From Gemmata sp. (GTDB taxonomy: Bacteria; Planctomycetota; Planctomycetia; Gemmatales; Gemmataceae), in contig JANWYJ010000058.1 of the NCBI GenBank assembly GCA_025055115.1, positions 1 through 64,000 on the forward strand: DNA of 64,000 bases. The letters run 5' to 3'. Of the stretch, positions 49,417-57,103 are shown piece after piece. Position 1 is the stretch's first letter. Each line of letters opens with the position of its first letter. The position numbers were made by a program, and so were the translations under genes. The notes beneath the pieces were generated by a model. That model saw only the letters and a program-made list of their open reading frames with translations. It was not told the DNA's origin and did no database searches.

Positions 49417-49621
49417 CGTATCGCCGCTTCCTGAGCGGCACCTTGAGCATGCTTGATCTAACTGCCGAATCAACCGCTTCGCGCTCTGGGCGTATCGGCG
49501 CTTCCTGAGTGGCACCTTGAGCATGGCTTTTCGACCTGGTGCCCGGTCACGATCAAGCAGTCCGAATGGCAGGCCGGCGCGACAGTTTCCTCATGATGGC
49601 TTTTCGACCCGGTGTCCCGTC
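49417..49621. repeat. Two interleaved direct repeats at the beta-RFAP synthase 3' end
   Basis: A 35-bp unit (CGTATCG(C/G)CGCTTCC...GAGCATG) at 49417-49451 and 49491-49525, and a 26-bp unit (ATGGCTTTTCGACC...) at 49523-49548 and 49596-49621. The last copy holds the terminal codons (HRVEKP) of the beta-RFAP synthase gene; 49523-49548 is an echo of them beyond the stop. Confidence 0.88.
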
Positions 49622-50532
49622 GCGATGCGGGCTACGAACGCTGGGATGCGCTGCCCCCAACGTGCGATCAATCCCTGGGCGCTAGCGCTATCTTCGACCA
49701 CGGCGAAAACGGTAGGCCCCCACGAGCTTTGCCCCACCGCGTGAATACCGCAACGGCGGATGGCGGCAATCAGTTCGGCCACATCGCGCGAAGCGTAGAC
49801 GCCGCCTTGGGCGACCGCAAAGGGTTCCCCGGCTTTGCGGTTGAACTCGTAGACCGCTTCCCCGAAAGCTGGTAAATCCCCCCGACGGGCGGCTGGCAGA
49901 ATCCCTTGTTCGGCAATTGTTCGCAATATCTCAGCCTGGCCGTCAGTGGCGGCCGCAAAGGCACGCTGTTCCGAGACACCGTACCACCGCCCCGCCACCG
50001 GCGGAATGAACAGCACCACGCGCCATGCCGTGGGGAGGTTCACATGCGCCAACAGCGGGGAGATGGTTTCGCCGGGTTGTTTGCCAGCTTCGATAATCAG
50101 GCCTCCCGCATCGAAACCATGAACGCCCACGGCCGATCGTTCGCCCCGGCCCACCCGTTCGGCCAGTGTCACGGCGGGTCCATCCCCTTCTTCTCCGGCC
50201 ACTGCGAGGGCTTTGGCCACGGCCAGCGCCAACTGTGTACCGACTCCCAGGCCGATGTGTTCCCGCGGACAACGTTCCACCAGAACTTGAAATGCCCGCC
50301 GGCGGCATTCGGGCAGCGATACCAGAAAGCGCGTGGCGAAGTGCTGCGCTCGGCTGGCCAGCACACCTTCAAATTGCGACGATGCCGCAACCCGGGCCGC
50401 GACCACGACACCCGGTTGGTCGATCATCAGCCCGACCCCACCGAAGATGCGTTGTTCCGCCGGGGGATGATCGCCACTTGGTACATGGAACAAGCCGAAA
50501 TGCAACCGGCTGGGAGCGACGACGCGAATCAT
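49591..50532 (-). CDS. Beta-ribofuranosylaminobenzene 5'-phosphate synthase
   Basis: 313 residues from the ATG at 50532. It joins 4-aminobenzoate to PRPP with loss of CO2 and PPi, the first committed step to tetrahydromethanopterin. GHMP-kinase-type fold: VVAPSRLHFGLFHV near the start, FGGVGLMIDQPGVVV, HIGLGVGTQLALAVAKALAV (glycine-rich motif), RGERSAVGVHGFDAGGLIIE and SSWGPTVFAVVE. Its start overlaps the DUF447 stop by four bases (ATGA), a pairing well known from C1-metabolism clusters of methylotrophs and planctomycetes. Confidence 0.9.
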   Translation of the reverse strand: MIRVVAPSRLHFGLFHVPSGDHPPAEQRIFGGVGLMIDQPGVVVAARVAASSQFEGVLASRAQHFATRFLVSLPECRRRAFQVLVERCPREHIGLGVGTQLALAVAKALAVAGEEGDGPAVTLAERVGRGERSAVGVHGFDAGGLIIEAGKQPGETISPLLAHVNLPTAWRVVLFIPPVAGRWYGVSEQRAFAAATDGQAEILRTIAEQGILPAARRGDLPAFGEAVYEFNRKAGEPFAVAQGGVYASRDVAELIAAIRRCGIHAVGQSSWGPTVFAVVEDSASAQGLIARWGQRIPAFVARIATGHRVEKPS

Positions 50533-51104
50533 CGGCTCGCCTCCACTTGCTGCCGATGGGCTTCGAGCAAGGCCATCGCCGCTTGTTCCTGCGGTCCGCC
50601 GGTCTTGTCCACAATCACCCGCAATTTGGCGAACTCCGCGGCTACCTCCGCGGGCGGCAACACGTGGAGGCGAGTGGCCATGATAGCGGCTTCGACAATC
50701 GCATGCTTGGCCCGGTTGAAGCCGAACCAATCGCGACCACGCCCAGTGTGAACGACATCCGCAATCAGAGTATGACGTTCGCCGCGTTCATCGCGAGCAC
50801 GGACAACGAATTCCAAATACCGGCAGCAATCGACAAGGACAAAGCCGCGAATCCGTTCGGCCGCACGCACCGGTGGCAGTTCCCGAAGGGCACCGATGGC
50901 GGCTTGAGCCAAAAGGAGGGCATCGTCGGTAATGTGAATCACTCCTTGCGGGTGTCGGCAGAGGTTGCGGTAGGTTTGCGACGATGGAAACAAGCGCAAG
51001 GTGAGCTGTGAGCTATCCGCATCCACACGCGGACCCATCGGGGCCAGATGGGCCGAGCCGTCGGCATCGAGCGTTGTGACCAAGGCTTCGAGGATTAACG
51101 CCAT
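50529..51104 (-). CDS. DUF447 (H4MPT cluster) protein
   Basis: 191 residues. Begins ILEALVTTLDADGSAHLAPM then GPRVD, the DUF447 start resembling an FMN-binding split barrel (NITDDALLLAQAAIG-type segment, FGFNRAKHAIVEAAIMATRL). DUF447 genes accompany methanopterin genes in methylotrophs and archaea; a flavin- or pterin-related role is inferred from this company. Translationally coupled to the beta-RFAP synthase. Confidence 0.87.
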   Translation of the reverse strand: MALILEALVTTLDADGSAHLAPMGPRVDADSSQLTLRLFPSSQTYRNLCRHPQGVIHITDDALLLAQAAIGALRELPPVRAAERIRGFVLVDCCRYLEFVVRARDERGERHTLIADVVHTGRGRDWFGFNRAKHAIVEAAIMATRLHVLPPAEVAAEFAKLRVIVDKTGGPQEQAAMALLEAHRQQVEASR

Positions 51105-51630
51105 TTCACCTCAAACGGCACGCGTGCTTTCATATGTTGGGGAGGAACGGTGACCATAGCCGAGCCGGGGGTGTGAGTTCGGTGGTTCACTGGGGTGACG
51201 ATGCGCACCAGTCCCGGGCACGGGACCGGCGGTTAGCCCGCCGGGTGGGGGTTCGGTGGTTCACTGGGGTGACGATGCGCCGGCCCTCCGCAGGTCAGAA
51301 CCGCAAGGGGTGTGTCGCTCCAATGGCCCACCGAGAAAGCGTCTTGCCGCCTGACTTCTCAGGCTACCGACGGCATGATCGCCAGTATCCTCCTCGAAGT
51401 TGGAACTATTCTAGCACGACCTAGGCCCGTGTTGAAACATCCGGGTACAGACTACTCACGCTGGGGAGCCGAGGTTGTGTCATCCGAGGAATTCTCGGAT
51501 TGTGGGTATTCTCGGTGTTCGAGGGATTTTGTTTTTGACTTGCCCCCCCGTGTGTGTTACTTGTAAGCCGCTGTGGAAATTACCGCCCGAGTTCGCCTCT
51601 GTCATTGCCTTGGGGAAGGAGACCCATCCC
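51105..51630. other. Leader region of the CsrA-receiver gene, with a 30-bp repeat
   Basis: No gene seen. A 30-bp direct repeat (GTTCGGTGGTTCAC...GATGCGC) occupies 51177-51206 and 51251-51280. Nearer the gene, CCGAG-GAATT-CTCGG (51484-51498) forms a short inverted repeat, and ATTCTCGG occurs again at 51509-51516. Confidence 0.5.
51535..51563 (+). promoter_or_regulatory. Tentative promoter of the CsrA-receiver gene
   Basis: TTGACT (51535-51540), 17 bp, then TACTTG (51558-51563), about 70 bp before the ATG at 51631. The -35 is good, the -10 poor, so this is a weak call. Confidence 0.25.
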
Positions 51631-52359
51631 ATGTTGGTACTGACCCGTCGTGTTGGGGAACGGATTGTCTTCCCGACGTTAGGCATCACCGTCGAGCTAC
51701 TGCGTGTGGCGAAAAACAGTGCCCAAGTGGGGATTGCCGCTCCCCCGGAGATTCGCATTCTCCGGGAGGAGTTGGGCGGCACAGCGACCGAGGCAGCGGC
51801 ACGCCAAGCCCGGCACGACCGGGCCAACGCCCTCAGCAAAATCACGCTGGCCGTTCACTTAGCGCAGAAACAGTGGGCCGCTGGACGAGCCGCAGACGCC
51901 GAACGCACCCTGTCGGCGGCGCTGGTCGCCCTCGAAGAACTCGATAAGCCGCGGAAAACGGTTATCCGTGAGAAACCCTGCCATGCCCTGATTGTCGAAG
52001 ACGACCTCAATCAGCGCGAACTGTTGGCCAGTTTGCTGGTGATGAGCGGTTGCGAATGCACCACCGCCGCCGACGGCGAAGACGCCTTGAACTTCCTGCG
52101 AACTCATCAACTGCCCGACATTATCTTCCTGGACATGGCCATGCCGCGCTGCGATGGTCCCGAAACACTGCGCCGCATTCGTGCCGACAAACGGCTGGCC
52201 AAACTGCCCGTCTACTCGATGAGCAGCACCAGCCCCAAGGAAGTGAACATTCCGGTGGGTCCGAACGGTTTCGATGGTTGGGTACCGAAACCCCTCAACC
52301 CCCATACCCTGTGGGAATTGATTCAAACAGCGGCTCAGGCCAAAGTGGTGGACAACTGA
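51631..52359 (+). CDS. CsrA fused to a response-regulator receiver domain
   Basis: 242 residues from the ATG at 51631, with AAGGAG about 12 bases upstream. Residues 1-48 are a full CsrA/RsmA domain: MLVLTRRVGERIVF at the start and VGIAAPPEIRILREEL, with Arg45 at the position of the RNA-binding Arg44 of E. coli CsrA. Residues ~52-112 are a helical Ala/Arg-rich linker. Residues 115-238 are a CheY-like receiver: acidic pair in VEDD (E123-D125), phospho-acceptor D168 in IIFLDMAMP, Ser/Thr at 198-200, Lys220 in VPKPL. This predicts a post-transcriptional regulator whose mRNA binding is controlled by phosphorylation. No histidine kinase gene is adjacent. Confidence 0.92.
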   Translation: MLVLTRRVGERIVFPTLGITVELLRVAKNSAQVGIAAPPEIRILREELGGTATEAAARQARHDRANALSKITLAVHLAQKQWAAGRAADAERTLSAALVALEELDKPRKTVIREKPCHALIVEDDLNQRELLASLLVMSGCECTTAADGEDALNFLRTHQLPDIIFLDMAMPRCDGPETLRRIRADKRLAKLPVYSMSSTSPKEVNIPVGPNGFDGWVPKPLNPHTLWELIQTAAQAKVVDN

Positions 52360-54178: not shown

Positions 54179-55381
54179 TTAGCCCTGTAAGCGTTTCAAG
54201 CGTTCCGCCAATTCATCTTCGGCCGCCGACGACCAGACGAAGTCGGGCGGCGGAACAAAGCCCCCTTCGGCATTGACGGTCGCGGCCGGCACTGGGCGTA
54301 ACGACGCAATCCCCAACAAGCGCCCGTTCAAGCGCAGCTCGAAGCTCCCGACGCGCGCCACATCGACGGCCTCAAAGAGAGTTGGGAGGAATACTGTGGG
54401 TGCATCGGTGATCAAAACGTGTGTTTCGGAATGCACCAGGGGGGTCATATCTCCGTTGGCAAGCCCGGTCACTTGCAAGCAGCAGACACCGACGGCCCCA
54501 GGTTCGGTACTCTGCAGCACAAAGCATGGTCCCAGCCGTTGAATGCCGGTCAGAGACGTGGGCAGCTTCAGGGTCCGGGCGGCCCCACACGATTCAATGA
54601 CGGCGAAGCGTGTGTCGAGCAGCCGGACGCTCGCCTCAAAGCCGGCCGCGGCGATGGCGACGACTCGCTGTGTGGCCAGCGGCCGATCGCACACTTGCCA
54701 GGTGACTTTCCAACTGCCTGGTTGCTGCGGGGTGAACGGGCAAACGGCCATCACCACGGCTTGCTGTTGCGTCAATTGGGTTAATGGCAGGCTGACGGAG
54801 GCGGGAAAGGTCGCGTTGGTGGTTTCTTCGGTGAAGAGGACTTTCAGCCCCAATTCGCCCAGCGGTAGAAGCGCTGTGGGACTGTGCAGTACCGCAGTTG
54901 CCAGAAGGGCTTCACACGCCTGGGGAACAAACGCTCCCACTGCCACGGTTGTGCCGGCGAGCCGTACGGCGACGGTGGCGTGTGTCAGGGTCAGCCCTAG
55001 CAGGAACGCCTGGGGGGTGAGGACCGGCAGGGTCAGGGGGGCCAACAACCGGCCTTTCCAGCGCAGTTCCGCAGCGGTGATGTTGGGTGGGACGGGCATG
55101 CGGAAGGTGATGCGCGTGCGGTTGTTCAATTCGGGCCGCAGGGTATCGGCGGGGATTGTGGCGGTGGGCAAGCGCAGGGAGAAATCCGCCTTGCGCCGGG
55201 TCGCCGAGCTGGTGGGCACAAGAAGATCGACGACCACGGCATCCGCCGACCAAGGGATGGGTGTTTCCCAGCGGGTTTGTCCGGCGCGTTCGTAGCCGAT
55301 CGCCACCAACAGCGGAACGGGGCGGCGACGCAGCAGGTTATCGCGAACCCAATCGAGCCAGCGCGTCGTCCACGGCGGCAT
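54179..55381 (-). CDS. Unknown protein, last gene of the E2/E1-like cluster
   Basis: 400 residues if the ATG at 55381 is used (GGAG nine bases upstream); ATG 55390 and GTG 55420 are alternatives. All overlap the end of the E1-like gene, so translation is coupled. No signal peptide. An N-terminal helix (TRWLDWVRDNLLRRRPVPLL) is followed by long beta-rich stretches that look like two or three Ig-like/beta-sandwich modules (GSWKVTWQVCDRPLATQRVV; GSFELRLNGRLLGIASLRPV). No JAB peptidase, RING or ubiquitin fold was recognised. It may be a substrate adaptor or target of the conjugation pair. Function unknown. Confidence 0.75.
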   Translation of the reverse strand: MPPWTTRWLDWVRDNLLRRRPVPLLVAIGYERAGQTRWETPIPWSADAVVVDLLVPTSSATRRKADFSLRLPTATIPADTLRPELNNRTRITFRMPVPPNITAAELRWKGRLLAPLTLPVLTPQAFLLGLTLTHATVAVRLAGTTVAVGAFVPQACEALLATAVLHSPTALLPLGELGLKVLFTEETTNATFPASVSLPLTQLTQQQAVVMAVCPFTPQQPGSWKVTWQVCDRPLATQRVVAIAAAGFEASVRLLDTRFAVIESCGAARTLKLPTSLTGIQRLGPCFVLQSTEPGAVGVCCLQVTGLANGDMTPLVHSETHVLITDAPTVFLPTLFEAVDVARVGSFELRLNGRLLGIASLRPVPAATVNAEGGFVPPPDFVWSSAAEDELAERLKRLQG

Positions 55382-56198
55382 CGAGTGCATCTCCGGTGGG
55401 AAGGGCCGCGGTTGATCCACAGGTCAAGCAACTGGGAGAACGGGGAATCGTGAAGCGGTGGGTCCGATAGGGAACCTCGAAGACCCCCGGTACCGCCTGT
55501 AGCGCCACCAACAAGCTGGTGCAGGGGGGGGGCGGCGCGGGGTTGGGCGACTCGGTCTTGGGGGGAGACCTATCAGCTTCCGTGGAGCCTGACAGCAACT
55601 CGAACGTCACCAGGGCATGCCAACTGGCAATAACAGCGATGGCGGCTTTGCTTGCGGGGATTGTGGTTTCGGGGAGTGGCGAGTGCGGCTGGCGGTAATC
55701 GGGCGGTGGTGCTGCGGGTTGTTCGACCACTTCCCGTTGCAGATAACTGGCCACACAGCCGTAACACGCCGCACCCGGTAAGAAGCGATGAACCCAGCCG
55801 CCGATACCGCCGCTGAGGACTTCTCCCAAGGTCCACGGTTTGCCCGCGGCTCGCAGAAGAGCATCGAAGGCCAACTTGGCGGCTTCATTGTCGGCCGCGC
55901 AGATGCCCACATCGCAAGCGGCAGCGCAGCGGGCGAATTCTGCTTGGTACTGCGGATCGGTGATGTCGGCCACAAGAGTGTGGAAGCGAATGTCGGGCCG
56001 CAGGGCTTCAACCCATTGGCGAGCCAGTTCCGCTTTGAGCTGGCCTACGGCGGAGGGTGGAAACAGGTGCCGATAGACATTGTGCGCTTGATAAACATCG
56101 GGTTCGATGAGGGTGATGTGGGTGATGCGGGGATCGCGGGCCATAAGGTCCAGTACCACGATTCCGCCGCTACCAGCGCCCAGTTGCAGCAGATGCAT
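55338..56198 (-). CDS. E1-like ThiF-family adenylating enzyme
   Basis: 286 residues. Rossmann nucleotide site LQLGAGSGGIVVLD (GxGxxG at 7-12), then IEPDVYQAHNVYRHLF with the E1-type Asp34, Asn40 and Arg43, Lys55 in the VGQLKAE block, and Asp103 in ICAADNEAAK. Zinc ligands are CYGC (145-148) and CLTC (257-260). These are the adenylation and zinc features of ThiF/MoeB/E1 enzymes. The start falls directly at the first beta strand, so the usual N-terminal helix is missing. It sits between an E2-like gene and a protein of unknown fold. Partner modifier is not obvious. Confidence 0.88.
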   Translation of the reverse strand: MHLLQLGAGSGGIVVLDLMARDPRITHITLIEPDVYQAHNVYRHLFPPSAVGQLKAELARQWVEALRPDIRFHTLVADITDPQYQAEFARCAAACDVGICAADNEAAKLAFDALLRAAGKPWTLGEVLSGGIGGWVHRFLPGAACYGCVASYLQREVVEQPAAPPPDYRQPHSPLPETTIPASKAAIAVIASWHALVTFELLSGSTEADRSPPKTESPNPAPPPPCTSLLVALQAVPGVFEVPYRTHRFTIPRSPSCLTCGSTAALPTGDALDAAVDDALARLGSR

Positions 56199-56361
56199 GA
56201 TGCGTCAGTGACCCAGGATAACGGAACATTGGGCCGCTTGGCTTTCGCCTTCGGGTGCTTGCGGAGCAACCCGGCCAGGCTGAGCGGAGTTTGGGCCGGC
56301 ATACGGGGAGGGCTGGTAAGACAGTGGCCGTCGGCCATGGCCACCGCGGCCCAGGGGGCCT

Positions 56362-56787
56362 TTACTTCGCTTCTGGCAGGGGCCATTCACCGGTTTCGTG
56401 CCACACTTCGTAGCACAATAGCCAGCGCCACGCAGCGACCACGGCAAAAATACAGGTGAAGCGGCTGGCATCCCAGCGGCTGGCAGCCCGGGTGGAGCCT
56501 TGCCGCCACAAGCACAGGGTTTGCCCTTCGAGCAAATGGGGGCAATGTTTCAGGGGCGTCAGGACGCGGGTTTCCGGTGGGACGATAGGGTAGCTGGACA
56601 GCAAGCGGGTTTCCAGACGATACAGGTTGTGGCACGGCTGGAGACAATACGAAAGGACCAATCCACTCCCGACCCGCGTAACGCTGATGCGGAATTCGGG
56701 ATCACGGCCGGCGTTGTAGCGTTCAATCGCCGGCACTTCGACGGCCAATAATCGCCGCTTGCCTAATTCCGTGTCGAGTAATCCCAC
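56362..56787 (-). CDS. E2-like (UBC-fold) protein
   Basis: 141 residues from the GTG at 56787, which has GGAG about 7 bases upstream; the longer open frame lacks protein-like character. It follows the prokaryotic E2 pattern: AVEVPAIERYNAGRDPEFRI, SSYPIVPPETRVLTP (the YPxxPP turn, 66-71), KHCPHLLEGQTLCLW with the putative catalytic Cys92, and the C-terminal helix AAWRWLLCYEVW followed by TGEWPLPE, like the W..E.W..tG.WPG.E end of bacterial E2 families. It would accept an activated modifier from the E1-like protein downstream. Family and motifs are seen; activity is inferred. Confidence 0.75.
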   Translation of the reverse strand: MGLLDTELGKRRLLAVEVPAIERYNAGRDPEFRISVTRVGSGLVLSYCLQPCHNLYRLETRLLSSYPIVPPETRVLTPLKHCPHLLEGQTLCLWRQGSTRAASRWDASRFTCIFAVVAAWRWLLCYEVWHETGEWPLPEAK

Positions 56788-56900
56788 GGCGACTCCGCGG
56801 ATGGCACCAAGTCCGTGGCTGCTTCCAGAGGCTCTCCATCGCCTCGGAGCATGGCCCAGAGGCAGTGGTCGAGGGCTGTTGGTTCTGAAGAAATCGTCAC
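56763..56900 (-). CDS. Possible 45-residue gene in the E2/E1 cluster
   Basis: GTG start at 56900, 20 bp after the preceding small gene; its TAG lies 24 bp inside the E2-like gene. The residues (MTISSEPTALDHCLWAMLRG, then an acidic end WDYSTRN) look protein-like and codon use is normal, but the RBS is weak. No fold is recognised. It could be a real peptide subunit or only the leader of the E2-like gene. Confidence 0.4.
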   Translation of the reverse strand: MTISSEPTALDHCLWAMLRGDGEPLEAATDLVPSAESPWDYSTRN

Positions 56901-56920
56901 ACGCCCGCAGGTGGCGAATC

Positions 56921-57103
56921 TCAGTAGTGGCACGGCACCGATTTGACGGCGGCAACCACTTGTTCATCCGGAATGTCTTCCGCAGTCCCGGCGAAGCGGG
57001 TGTCTTTGGGGTCCATCAGGAGTGCCAAACCGCGATCGGCATGACCACGGAGGGCGGTGAGAATTTGGCGGCGTTCGGCTTCGGCCAGCGGACGAAAATC
57101 CAT
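56921..57103 (-). CDS. Small helical protein heading the E2/E1 cluster
   Basis: 60 residues from the ATG at 57103, preceded by AGAGGA at good distance. Sequence begins MDFRPLAEAERRQILTALRG and ends VAAVKSVPCHY. It looks all-helical and soluble, lacks the beta-grasp pattern and the C-terminal Gly-Gly of ubiquitin-like modifiers, and has one cysteine three residues from the end. As first gene of the unit it might be the modifier, an adaptor, or unrelated. Not recognised. Confidence 0.6.
   Translation of the reverse strand: MDFRPLAEAERRQILTALRGHADRGLALLMDPKDTRFAGTAEDIPDEQVVAAVKSVPCHY

What the first reader, a model, noticed from the sequence alone, without database searches (positions are those of the whole stretch)
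54179..57103. Minimal bacterial E1/E2 ubiquitin-like conjugation cluster with unknown partners
Five tightly packed minus-strand reading frames: a 60-residue helical protein, a possible 45-residue protein, an E2-like protein with a TLCLW catalytic-type cysteine and WPLPE end, an E1-like ThiF protein with two CxxC pairs, and a ~400-residue beta-rich protein. Seen: motifs and overlaps. Known: E1/E2 pairs in bacteria usually travel with a ubiquitin-like modifier and a JAB peptidase (for example Bil-type operons) in defence or modification systems. Here neither a beta-grasp modifier with a Gly-Gly end nor a JAB domain is visible, so either the modifier is one of the tiny proteins, or it is encoded elsewhere, or the pair does different chemistry.
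Basis: partly seen in the sequence, partly recalled or inferred. Interest (0 to 1): 0.86.

Follow-up and report, generated by a model that had tools for sequence, protein, structure and literature searches.

The report
Planctomycete E1-E2-JAB operon with unusual peptide
This is a real, conserved set of bacterial genes resembling the machinery that tags proteins with ubiquitin, but its small candidate tag protein has neither the ubiquitin shape nor the usual glycine end, so it may run a tagging reaction of an unfamiliar kind.

Summary
The cluster is real and is part of something larger. Four of the five reading frames are genes: S (60 aa), E2 (141 aa), ThiF-type E1 (286 aa) and P5 (about 400 aa). 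The 45-residue frame is not conserved. In 44 of 64 related loci a JAMM-intact JAB gene lies just upstream of S: JAB-S-E2-E1-P5. E1 is in 67 of 95 family genomes, JAB in 46 of those 67 and none of the 28 others. S precedes E2 in 64 of 64 loci and always carries SVP[CSTV]HY near its end; 52 stop exactly at the Tyr. S is predicted alpha-beta-beta-alpha, not beta-grasp; P5 as three Ig-like domains. E2 keeps Cys92, but E1 lacks a conserved Cys where ThiF/UBA5-type E1s carry theirs. Two distant relatives keep S-E2-E1 order; one S ends HYAGR, a weaker homologue HGG. Best reading: a vertically inherited conjugation pathway in which E1 activates S, E2 transfers it and JAB removes it. No activity is shown. 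A new variant of bacterial E1/E2/JAB systems.

The parts
56921..57103 (-). S (P0001): 60-aa protein MDFRPL...SVPCHY, predicted alpha-beta-beta-alpha; candidate modifier or E2 partner
   Evidence: ATG after an AGAGGA stretch; S before E2 in 64 of 64 loci; SVP-x-HY in 64 of 64 and stop directly after Tyr in 52 of 64; AlphaFold2 pLDDT 83.0, pTM 0.49
56362..56787 (-). E2-like protein, 141 aa, GTG start, Cys92 in LCLW, invariant H84, W105, W120, W122, W135-P136 in relatives
   Evidence: Homology starts at residue 41 of the open frame in most loci; PADLOC E2 3.2e-9; C92 invariant in the 11-sequence alignment and in the 9-sequence alignment with distant relatives
55338..56198 (-). E1-like ThiF-family protein, 286 aa, GAGSGG, two CxxC pairs, no conserved Cys between them
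   Evidence: PF00899 1.1e-15; PADLOC E1-E2 9.9e-17; PDB best UBA5 8.5e-6; invariant columns; Cys count
54179..55420 (-). P5: beta-rich protein, 413 aa from GTG (or ATG at 55390 or 55381), predicted three Ig-like domains plus C-terminal helix
   Evidence: AlphaFold2 pLDDT 88.9, pTM 0.75; Foldseek/VIA matches to filamin, alpha-2-macroglobulin/TEP1 and cytokine-receptor Ig-like arrays; 66 of 95 genomes; overlaps E1
56763..56933 (-).
   Evidence: Matched in place only in the nearest relative L061 at 38.6%, plus one misplaced hit in L092; no match in the other 38 loci
56199..56361 (-). spacer between E2 and E1, judged non-coding
   Evidence: Length varies among relatives (median 69.5 nt, range -1 to 993 in 50 loci); no Pfam or NCBIfam hit for the overlapping frame

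Best explanation
A vertically inherited, reversible protein-conjugation pathway of Gemmatales (Planctomycetota), probably ancestrally five genes: JAB-S-E2-E1-P5. Proposed mechanism: E1 (ThiF type) uses ATP to adenylate the C-terminal carboxylate of the 60-aa protein S; because E1 has no conserved Cys at the usual catalytic place, the acyl group passes directly to Cys92 of E2; E2 joins S to a target; JAB trims S precursors that have residues beyond the Tyr and removes S from targets; P5, an Ig-like array whose gene overlaps that of E1, is a scaffold or target receptor. SHOWN by computation: gene content, conservation, co-occurrence, co-variation, intact E2 Cys and JAMM residues. INFERRED: all chemistry, S as the modifier, direct transfer without an E1 thioester, the roles of JAB and P5. 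The window's genus would run the pathway without the JAB.
For: Gene set: E1 67/95, P5 66/95; JAB in 46 of 67 genomes with E1 and 0 of 28 without (Fisher 4.5e-11, not corrected for ancestry). S before E2 in 64/64 loci. Where S-E2 is not within 5 kb of E1 (5 of 41 E1 loci), an E2 is found elsewhere in the genome in all five, with S beside it (for G031 locus L142, matched by coordinates). Pairwise identities of the five proteins correlate at r 0.84-0.90 in 30 complete loci (shared ancestry gives this too). S residues 55-60 have mean conservation 0.97 versus 0.69 for 7-54; E1, P5 and JAB have no conserved C-terminus. E2: [LIVM]C[LM]W in 58 of 63 called frames, the number of frames of full length (five are mis-called, 5-43 aa). 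JAB: H88, H90, D101 invariant in 42 sequences, E27 in 33. Distant L223 keeps JAB-S-E2-E1 with S homologous (hhalign 88.6%, E 2.6e-6; 0 of 1843 scored shuffles as good) and ending HYAGR; L227 keeps S-E2-E1 with S ending HGG (E 0.0012 and 1 of 1600 scored shuffles as good, after adding L223 to the profile).
Against: S in the window has no C-terminal Gly and is not predicted beta-grasp; in CBASS, changing the terminal Gly of cGAS to Ser, Val, Arg or Trp abolished the Cap2 thioester (PMC10097602, passages), so a C-terminal Tyr is a poor substrate by precedent. No activity, complex or co-fold was tested. S-E2 adjacency equally fits an E2 accessory protein. The N-terminus of S is as conserved as its tail (0.98). 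The L227 link is one genome and weak (E 0.034 before L223 was added, 65 of 1486 scored shuffles as good). The tail/JAB association (p=0.024) used 46 and 21 genomes as denominators although not every S was read, is uncorrected for ancestry and rests on few independent events. JAB is missing in 21 of 67 genomes that have E1.
Confidence: 0.4

Rival explanations
1. S is an obligate E2 partner (adaptor, activator or substrate-recruiting subunit) and the true modifier is a beta-grasp protein encoded elsewhere, e.g. a ThiS/MoaD-type carrier.
For: S precedes E2 in 64/64 loci, also where E1 is far away; S is not predicted beta-grasp and has no Gly end; its N-terminus MDFRPL is as conserved as its tail (0.98 vs 0.97), which suits a binding protein; in L225/L226 an N-terminal extension precedes E2 in the same frame, though its relation to S is not supported.
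Against: Among frames of 45 aa or more in 41 loci no other small gene of similar spread was recognised (families of 6 or more loci, judged by eye); the fixed last residue (52/64) with optional 1-6 residue extensions is not explained; one weak distant homologue ends in GG. ThiS/MoaD genes elsewhere in the genome were not searched for.
Confidence: 0.27
2. The pair does other chemistry: E1 activates a small molecule or a peptide carboxylate that is not a protein modifier (as recalled for MccB-like enzymes), and the E2-like protein is an acyl carrier or transferase.
For: E1 lacks a conserved Cys between its CxxC pairs (13 of 50 sequences have any; no column above 5 of 50); S lacks Gly; C100 is an unexplained invariant Cys (50/50).
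Against: The E2 Cys and, in 46 of 67 genomes, an operon-type JAB point to acyl transfer onto and off proteins; S is strongly conserved (mean identity 0.66 in 30 loci), unlike most natural-product precursors (recalled).
Confidence: 0.13
3. Anti-phage defence system of the CBASS/Bil kind.
For: Best profile hits are PADLOC CBASS-type E2, E1-E2 and JAB models; NCBIfam's 6A-MBL anti-phage model is E1's second hit at 4e-10, far below cut-off (38.9 of 320 bits); tiny-protein/E2/E1/JAB relatives sit beside MBL-like and patatin genes or beside cas2.
Against: Vertical: the E1 tree groups genera g28, g36, g15, g24 and family f2 intact; squalene synthase and PhoPQ-related neighbours each recur in 14 of 41 loci; no plasmid or phage record matches the window's E2 at E<=0.01; present in 51 of 66 good-quality family genomes; no effector or sensor gene was recognised among the conserved neighbours (by eye).
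Confidence: 0.12
4. P5 or another operon protein is itself the thing conjugated, like cGAS in type II CBASS.
For: CBASS precedent; the P5 gene overlaps E1 and some P5 end in G (11 of 44).
Against: P5 C-termini are not conserved (14 different last residues in 44) and P5 is the least conserved protein (mean identity 0.355).
Confidence: 0.06

Closest known systems
Type II CBASS Cap2 (E1-E2) and Cap3 (JAB)
   Same: Nearest profile hits of E2, E1 and JAB; a non-beta-grasp protein as the conjugated partner is a precedent (cGAS, PMC10097602 passages)
   Different: Separate E1 and E2; no nucleotidyltransferase among the seven window neighbours scanned; no conserved Cys in E1 at the ThiF-type place; tiny S; vertical, not mobile
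BilABCD
   Same: Separate E1, E2, JAB and a further small gene in one operon (description from PMC11354881 passages)
   Different: BilA is two Ub-like domains with a processed C-terminal Gly; BilD has inactive and active adenylation domains and a Cys domain; here S is 60 aa without Gly and E1 is a single 286-aa ThiF protein; extra Ig-like P5
Iyer et al. 2006 operon types 6a-6e
   Same: JAB + E1 + E2 gene neighbourhoods; 6d also has a small protein and a further conserved protein (PMC1779556, section 14 read)
   Different: The 6d small protein is predicted beta-grasp with a conserved C-terminal Gly; the terms Rhodopirellula, Gemmata and planctomycete do not occur in its text; a 'beta-strand rich' domain X is named in its figure legends but was not compared with P5
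UFM1 cascade (UBA5/UFC1)
   Same: Best PDB sequence matches of E1 (UBA5, 8.5e-6) and of the E2 profile (UFC1, 0.049); short single-domain E1
   Different: No UFM1-like gene in the operon (not searched genome-wide); no Cys at the UBA5 catalytic position (C250, recalled)
Tiny-protein/E2/E2'/E1/JAB/MBL/patatin operon of Mesorhizobium sp. AR10 plasmid (L231) and its partial counterpart in G374 (L224)
   Same: Tiny protein directly before E2, separate E1, JAB
   Different: Tiny protein not detectably homologous to S and holds LGG near its end; a second E2-like protein; MBL-like and patatin genes on the plasmid

Membership tests
E1-like (ThiF/MoeB/UBA) superfamily | ThiF domain with nucleotide-binding GxGxxG and conserved N/R/K/D residues | tested here: met
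   PF00899 57.8 bits, cut-off 28.1; G7, G9, G12, N40, R43, K55, D103 invariant in 50
E1-like (ThiF/MoeB/UBA) superfamily | Conserved catalytic Cys between the two zinc CxxC pairs (thioester-forming members) | tested here: not met
   No column with more than 5 of 50 Cys between C148 and C257; by sequence alignment, no structure
Ubiquitin-conjugating (E2/UBC) superfamily | Catalytic-type Cys with a nearby upstream His | tested here: met
   H84 and C92 invariant in A1 (11 sequences) and in A7 (9 sequences); PADLOC E2 3.2e-9
Ubiquitin-conjugating (E2/UBC) superfamily | UBC fold in a model or structure | not tested
JAB/JAMM isopeptidase (relatives' first gene) | JAMM metal-binding residues E...HxH...D | tested here: met
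   PF14464 above cut-off in 4 of 4 tested; H88, H90, D101 invariant in 42; E27 in 33
Ubiquitin-like modifier (beta-grasp) | beta-grasp topology | tested here: not met
   Model of S is H8-23, E27-30, E37-41, H46-55; pLDDT 83.0 but pTM only 0.49, so the model is not final
Ubiquitin-like modifier (beta-grasp) | C-terminal Gly | tested here: not met
   Window S ends CHY; 52 of 64 end at Tyr, 5 of 12 extended tails have Gly within two residues
BilABCD | Two-domain Ub-like BilA and E1 with Cys domain | tested here: not met
   S is 60 aa, E1 is a 286-aa protein with one ThiF match
Type II CBASS | CD-NTase gene in the operon | tested here: not met
   None among the four operon proteins or seven neighbouring frames of the window scanned with Pfam; relatives' neighbours were only looked at by eye
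ThiF/MoeB cofactor biosynthesis | NCBIfam equivalog cut-off | tested here: not met
   47.3 of 275.25 bits (TIGR02356), 19.4 of 376.55 (TIGR02355)
Bub operon | Its Ubl, E1, E2 and protease | not testable with these tools
   The paper (PMC12885553) is not held; seen only as a reference entry
Ig-like domain arrays (P5) | Tandem Ig-like beta-sandwiches | tested here: inconclusive
   Best Foldseek E 4.7e-6 (filamin rod); VIA Z up to 9.6 with multi-domain rows at about 10-17 A rmsd; single-domain rows Z 8.0-8.8 at 2.6-2.9 A over 93-105 residues

The most novel reading that the evidence does not exclude
S is a protein modifier that is not a beta-grasp fold and ends in Tyr: an E1/E2/JAB cascade that evolved in Planctomycetota onto a 60-aa alpha-beta-beta-alpha peptide, in which the ancestral tail (HYAG/HGG-like) was cut back to a fixed HY carboxylate and E1 passes it straight from adenylate to the E2 cysteine.
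Probability: 0.27. Interest if true: 0.92.

Novelty: new variant of a known kind. Interest (0 to 1): 0.7.

Why it matters
Bacterial E1/E2 pathways characterised so far act on Ub-like proteins or on cGAS with a C-terminal Gly and appear to work mainly in phage defence (PMC12687455 and PMC10097602, passages). This set looks like a chromosomal lineage trait kept by most Gemmatales examined, including cultivated strains such as Zavarzinella formosa and Limnoglobus roseus, with two hallmarks of the canonical relay (modifier Gly, E1 Cys) missing while the E2 Cys, and in most genomes the JAB, are kept. If S is the modifier, it shows how far a ubiquitin-type cascade can drift from ubiquitin; if not, a strongly conserved E2 partner has been overlooked. 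Either way the question is testable with five small genes.

Tried and rejected
Rejected: the 45-residue frame as a gene; the alternative frame across the E2-E1 spacer (no family hit); a thiamin/molybdopterin role; P5 as a hidden ubiquitin-like protein (Ig-like model); P5 as the conjugated protein (no conserved tail); the genome's only JAB over the Pfam cut-off (L105, 163 aa, beside a frame that looks by eye like argininosuccinate synthase) as the operon JAB, since the operon JAB profile finds nothing in G000; L106 as a JAB (partial hit at E 0.125; a 438-aa frame on the other strand looks by eye like a flavoprotein).

Led nowhere: Pfam, NCBIfam and PADLOC for S in the window; Pfam for 65 S members, best 0.053; fold search of S, no match at E <= 0.001 and best VIA Z 3.2 (absence there proves nothing); Pfam for 44 P5 members, best 0.023; window E2 in plasmids and phages. 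One viral-collection contig (L222) carries JAB-S-E2-E1 at about 57-77% identity to my queries, to my mind more likely a planctomycete piece than a phage; its other genes were not examined. Homology of P5 to the beta-rich proteins after E1 in L223 and L227 was not supported (best E 0.0056, hhalign 2.8%). Homology of S to the tiny proteins of L224, L231 and the E2 extensions of L225/L226 was not supported. E2 profile searches in the classes of G392/G374 (23 genomes) and G442 (12 genomes) added no new genome. Literature: nine searches showed, in the rows listed (5-20 each), no paper that describes this gene set; only open-licence papers are held, and Burroughs 2009, Chambers 2024, Hor 2024 and Ye 2025 were not read.

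Papers: PMC1779556 (passages and section 14), PMC10097602, PMC11354881, PMC12355090 and PMC12687455 (passages); all others search listings only or nothing. Recalled, not from a call: MccB chemistry, UBA5 C250, the conservation habits of natural-product precursors, that Burroughs 2009 treats such operons.

Rows dropped before counts: 5 of 63 E2 frames (5-43 aa, mis-called); JAB, E1, P5 and S sequences below length limits before alignments (limits); for the E1 alignment A5 46 sequences (45 of the 47 loci listed plus the window) and for JAB A6 33 of 35 listed were given; P5 A3 held 43 of 43 listed plus the window. In one search and families were read by eye, and frames lying inside known genes were set aside. 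Shuffle counts: 2000 shuffles per sequence were made, only those that HMMER scored are counted (1486-1913).


Full report
OBSERVATION. The window's minus strand carries S (57103-56921), E2 (56787-56362, GTG), E1 (56198-55338) and P5 (55420-54179), read directly. E1 is ThiF by Pfam (1.1e-15). E2 is found only by PADLOC models (3.2e-9) and by weak matches of its profile to UBC structures, UFC1 first at E 0.049. The extra 45-residue frame has a match in place only in the nearest relative.

CONSERVATION. In the same family E1 is in 67 of 95 genomes (51 of 66 good ones) and P5 in 66 of 95. I took 40 relatives' regions. With the window, S and E2 lie within 5 kb of E1 in 36 of 41 loci. In the other five an E2 lies elsewhere in the same genome, with S beside it (G031 by locus L142). 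A named-genome scan with the E2 profile gave 64 loci, with titles mostly naming Gemmataceae, Gemmatales or Planctomycetota (a few bins carry other names), and S precedes E2 in all 64; E1 was found in 54, P5 in 48 and JAB in 44 of them, several loci being cut by contig ends. A class-wide search found E2 in 64 of 297 genomes: 57 of the family, six of a sister family and one weak outlier.

THE MISSING JAB. Upstream of S, 21 of the 41 E1 loci and 44 of the 64 E2 loci (gap 13-499 nt) carry a Prok-JAB protein, usually of about 240-360 aa, above the Pfam cut-off in 4 of 4 scanned and with the metal-binding residues conserved. At genome level JAB is in 46 of 67 genomes with E1 and in 0 of 28 without. 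All 19 genomes of the window's genus lack it, as do G031, G052, G053, G072 and G073. So the window shows a derived state: in G000 the only JAB over the Pfam cut-off is a 163-aa protein elsewhere. Pieces can move apart and persist: in G001 JAB, S-E2 and E1-P5 lie on three contigs, and in the one-contig genome G051 JAB-S-E2 and E1-P5 are about 4.4 Mb apart.

PROTEINS. In 30 loci with all five genes mean identities are E2 0.69, S 0.66, E1 0.58, JAB 0.47, P5 0.36, correlated at 0.84-0.90. S has two near-fixed ends, residues 1-6 and 55-60 (0.98, 0.97; middle 0.69). SVP[CSTV]HY is in all 64; 52 stop at Tyr, 12 go on by one to six residues, five of them with Gly within two residues. The model of S is alpha-beta-beta-alpha (pLDDT 83.0, pTM 0.49). 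P5 is modelled confidently as three Ig-like domains. E1 has invariant adenylation residues and two CxxC pairs but no conserved Cys between them, where ThiF-type E1s hold their catalytic Cys; C100 is its only other invariant Cys. The UBA5 catalytic Cys position is recalled and was placed by eye.

DISTANT RELATIVES. A phylum-wide search gave five more genomes (6 of 392 including G000). L223 has JAB, a 65-aa protein, E2, E1 and a beta-rich protein; its small protein is an S homologue ending HYAGR. L227 has small protein-E2-E1; the small protein ends HGG and is a homologue only at the edge of detection. E1 and JAB of L223 and E1 of L227 are clear homologues; the beta-rich proteins are not supported as homologues of P5. 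L224 and a Mesorhizobium plasmid (L231) have a tiny protein with LGG before E2, not detectably related to S, then a second E2-like protein, E1 and JAB, and on the plasmid MBL-like and patatin genes. These were found by looking for E2; no count of tiny proteins before other E2s was made.

MECHANISM. Best reading: E1 adenylates S, E2 Cys92 takes it, a target receives it, JAB trims and removes it, P5 scaffolds. Everything after gene content is inference. Against it stand the Tyr end and the missing E1 Cys; in CBASS a bulky last residue abolished the thioester. The rival that S is an E2 accessory is nearly as good. All 12 extended tails are in genomes with a JAB, and none of the 20 JAB-less family genomes whose S I read (of 21) has one. 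The test (10 of 46 versus 0 of 21, p=0.024) treats unread tails as unextended and ignores ancestry, so it fits trimming only weakly.

FUNCTION. The E1 tree keeps several genera together (g1 is a 14-tip clade with one g37 member; g37 itself is not together), squalene synthase and PhoPQ-related neighbours each recur in 14 of 41 loci, and no plasmid or phage match of the window's E2 was found. This points to a chromosomal lineage trait rather than a mobile defence system, though whole-set losses (28 of 95, among them G013 and G017 of the window's own genus, both rated 100% complete) show that it is dispensable. Its process is unknown; regulation of a cell-envelope or stress process would be a guess.

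NOVELTY. Enzymes are of known kinds; the set, S and P5 were not found in the families or papers searched. Only open-licence papers were searchable and key papers on bacterial conjugation were not held, so an earlier description cannot be excluded.

Noticed in passing
L225:8041-10346 (+) and L226:2118-4643 (-): In two genomes of one planctomycete family an E2 with a long N-terminal extension (holding GG in L226) is followed by a JAB+E1 fusion (PF14464 below cut-off, PF00899) and preceded by a cas2-like gene (PF09827 1.3e-18 in L226; L225 by eye); a RAMP-like frame, by eye, lies upstream in L226. A possibly CRISPR-linked E1/E2/JAB set.
   Followed up: partly
L231:3819-8378 (NZ_CP080523.1) and L224: Plasmid operon of Mesorhizobium sp. 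AR10: 57-aa protein with LGGEY end, E2, Phd/YefM domain fused to an E2-like domain, ThiF E1, JAB, MBL-like, patatin; counterparts of the first five genes also in planctomycete G374. Possibly an uncharacterised defence system.
   Followed up: partly
window 51475-52359 (+): CsrA domain and response-regulator receiver domain in one frame (PF02599, PF00072).
   Followed up: no
   Followed up: yes
L094:6379-7056 (-): A convergent M50-family peptidase (PF02163) lies directly after P5 in this relative; similar-looking frames follow P5 in some others (by eye).
   Followed up: no
window 49591-51104 (-): DUF447 protein next to a protein with a GHMP-kinase C-terminal domain.
   Followed up: no
L210 (G206): E2-E1 pair in another family of the class, preceded by a frame that looks by eye like a multi-pass membrane protein; the E2 matches at 8.0e-13 and its E1 matches the window family's E1 profile (7.8e-20).
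   Followed up: partly
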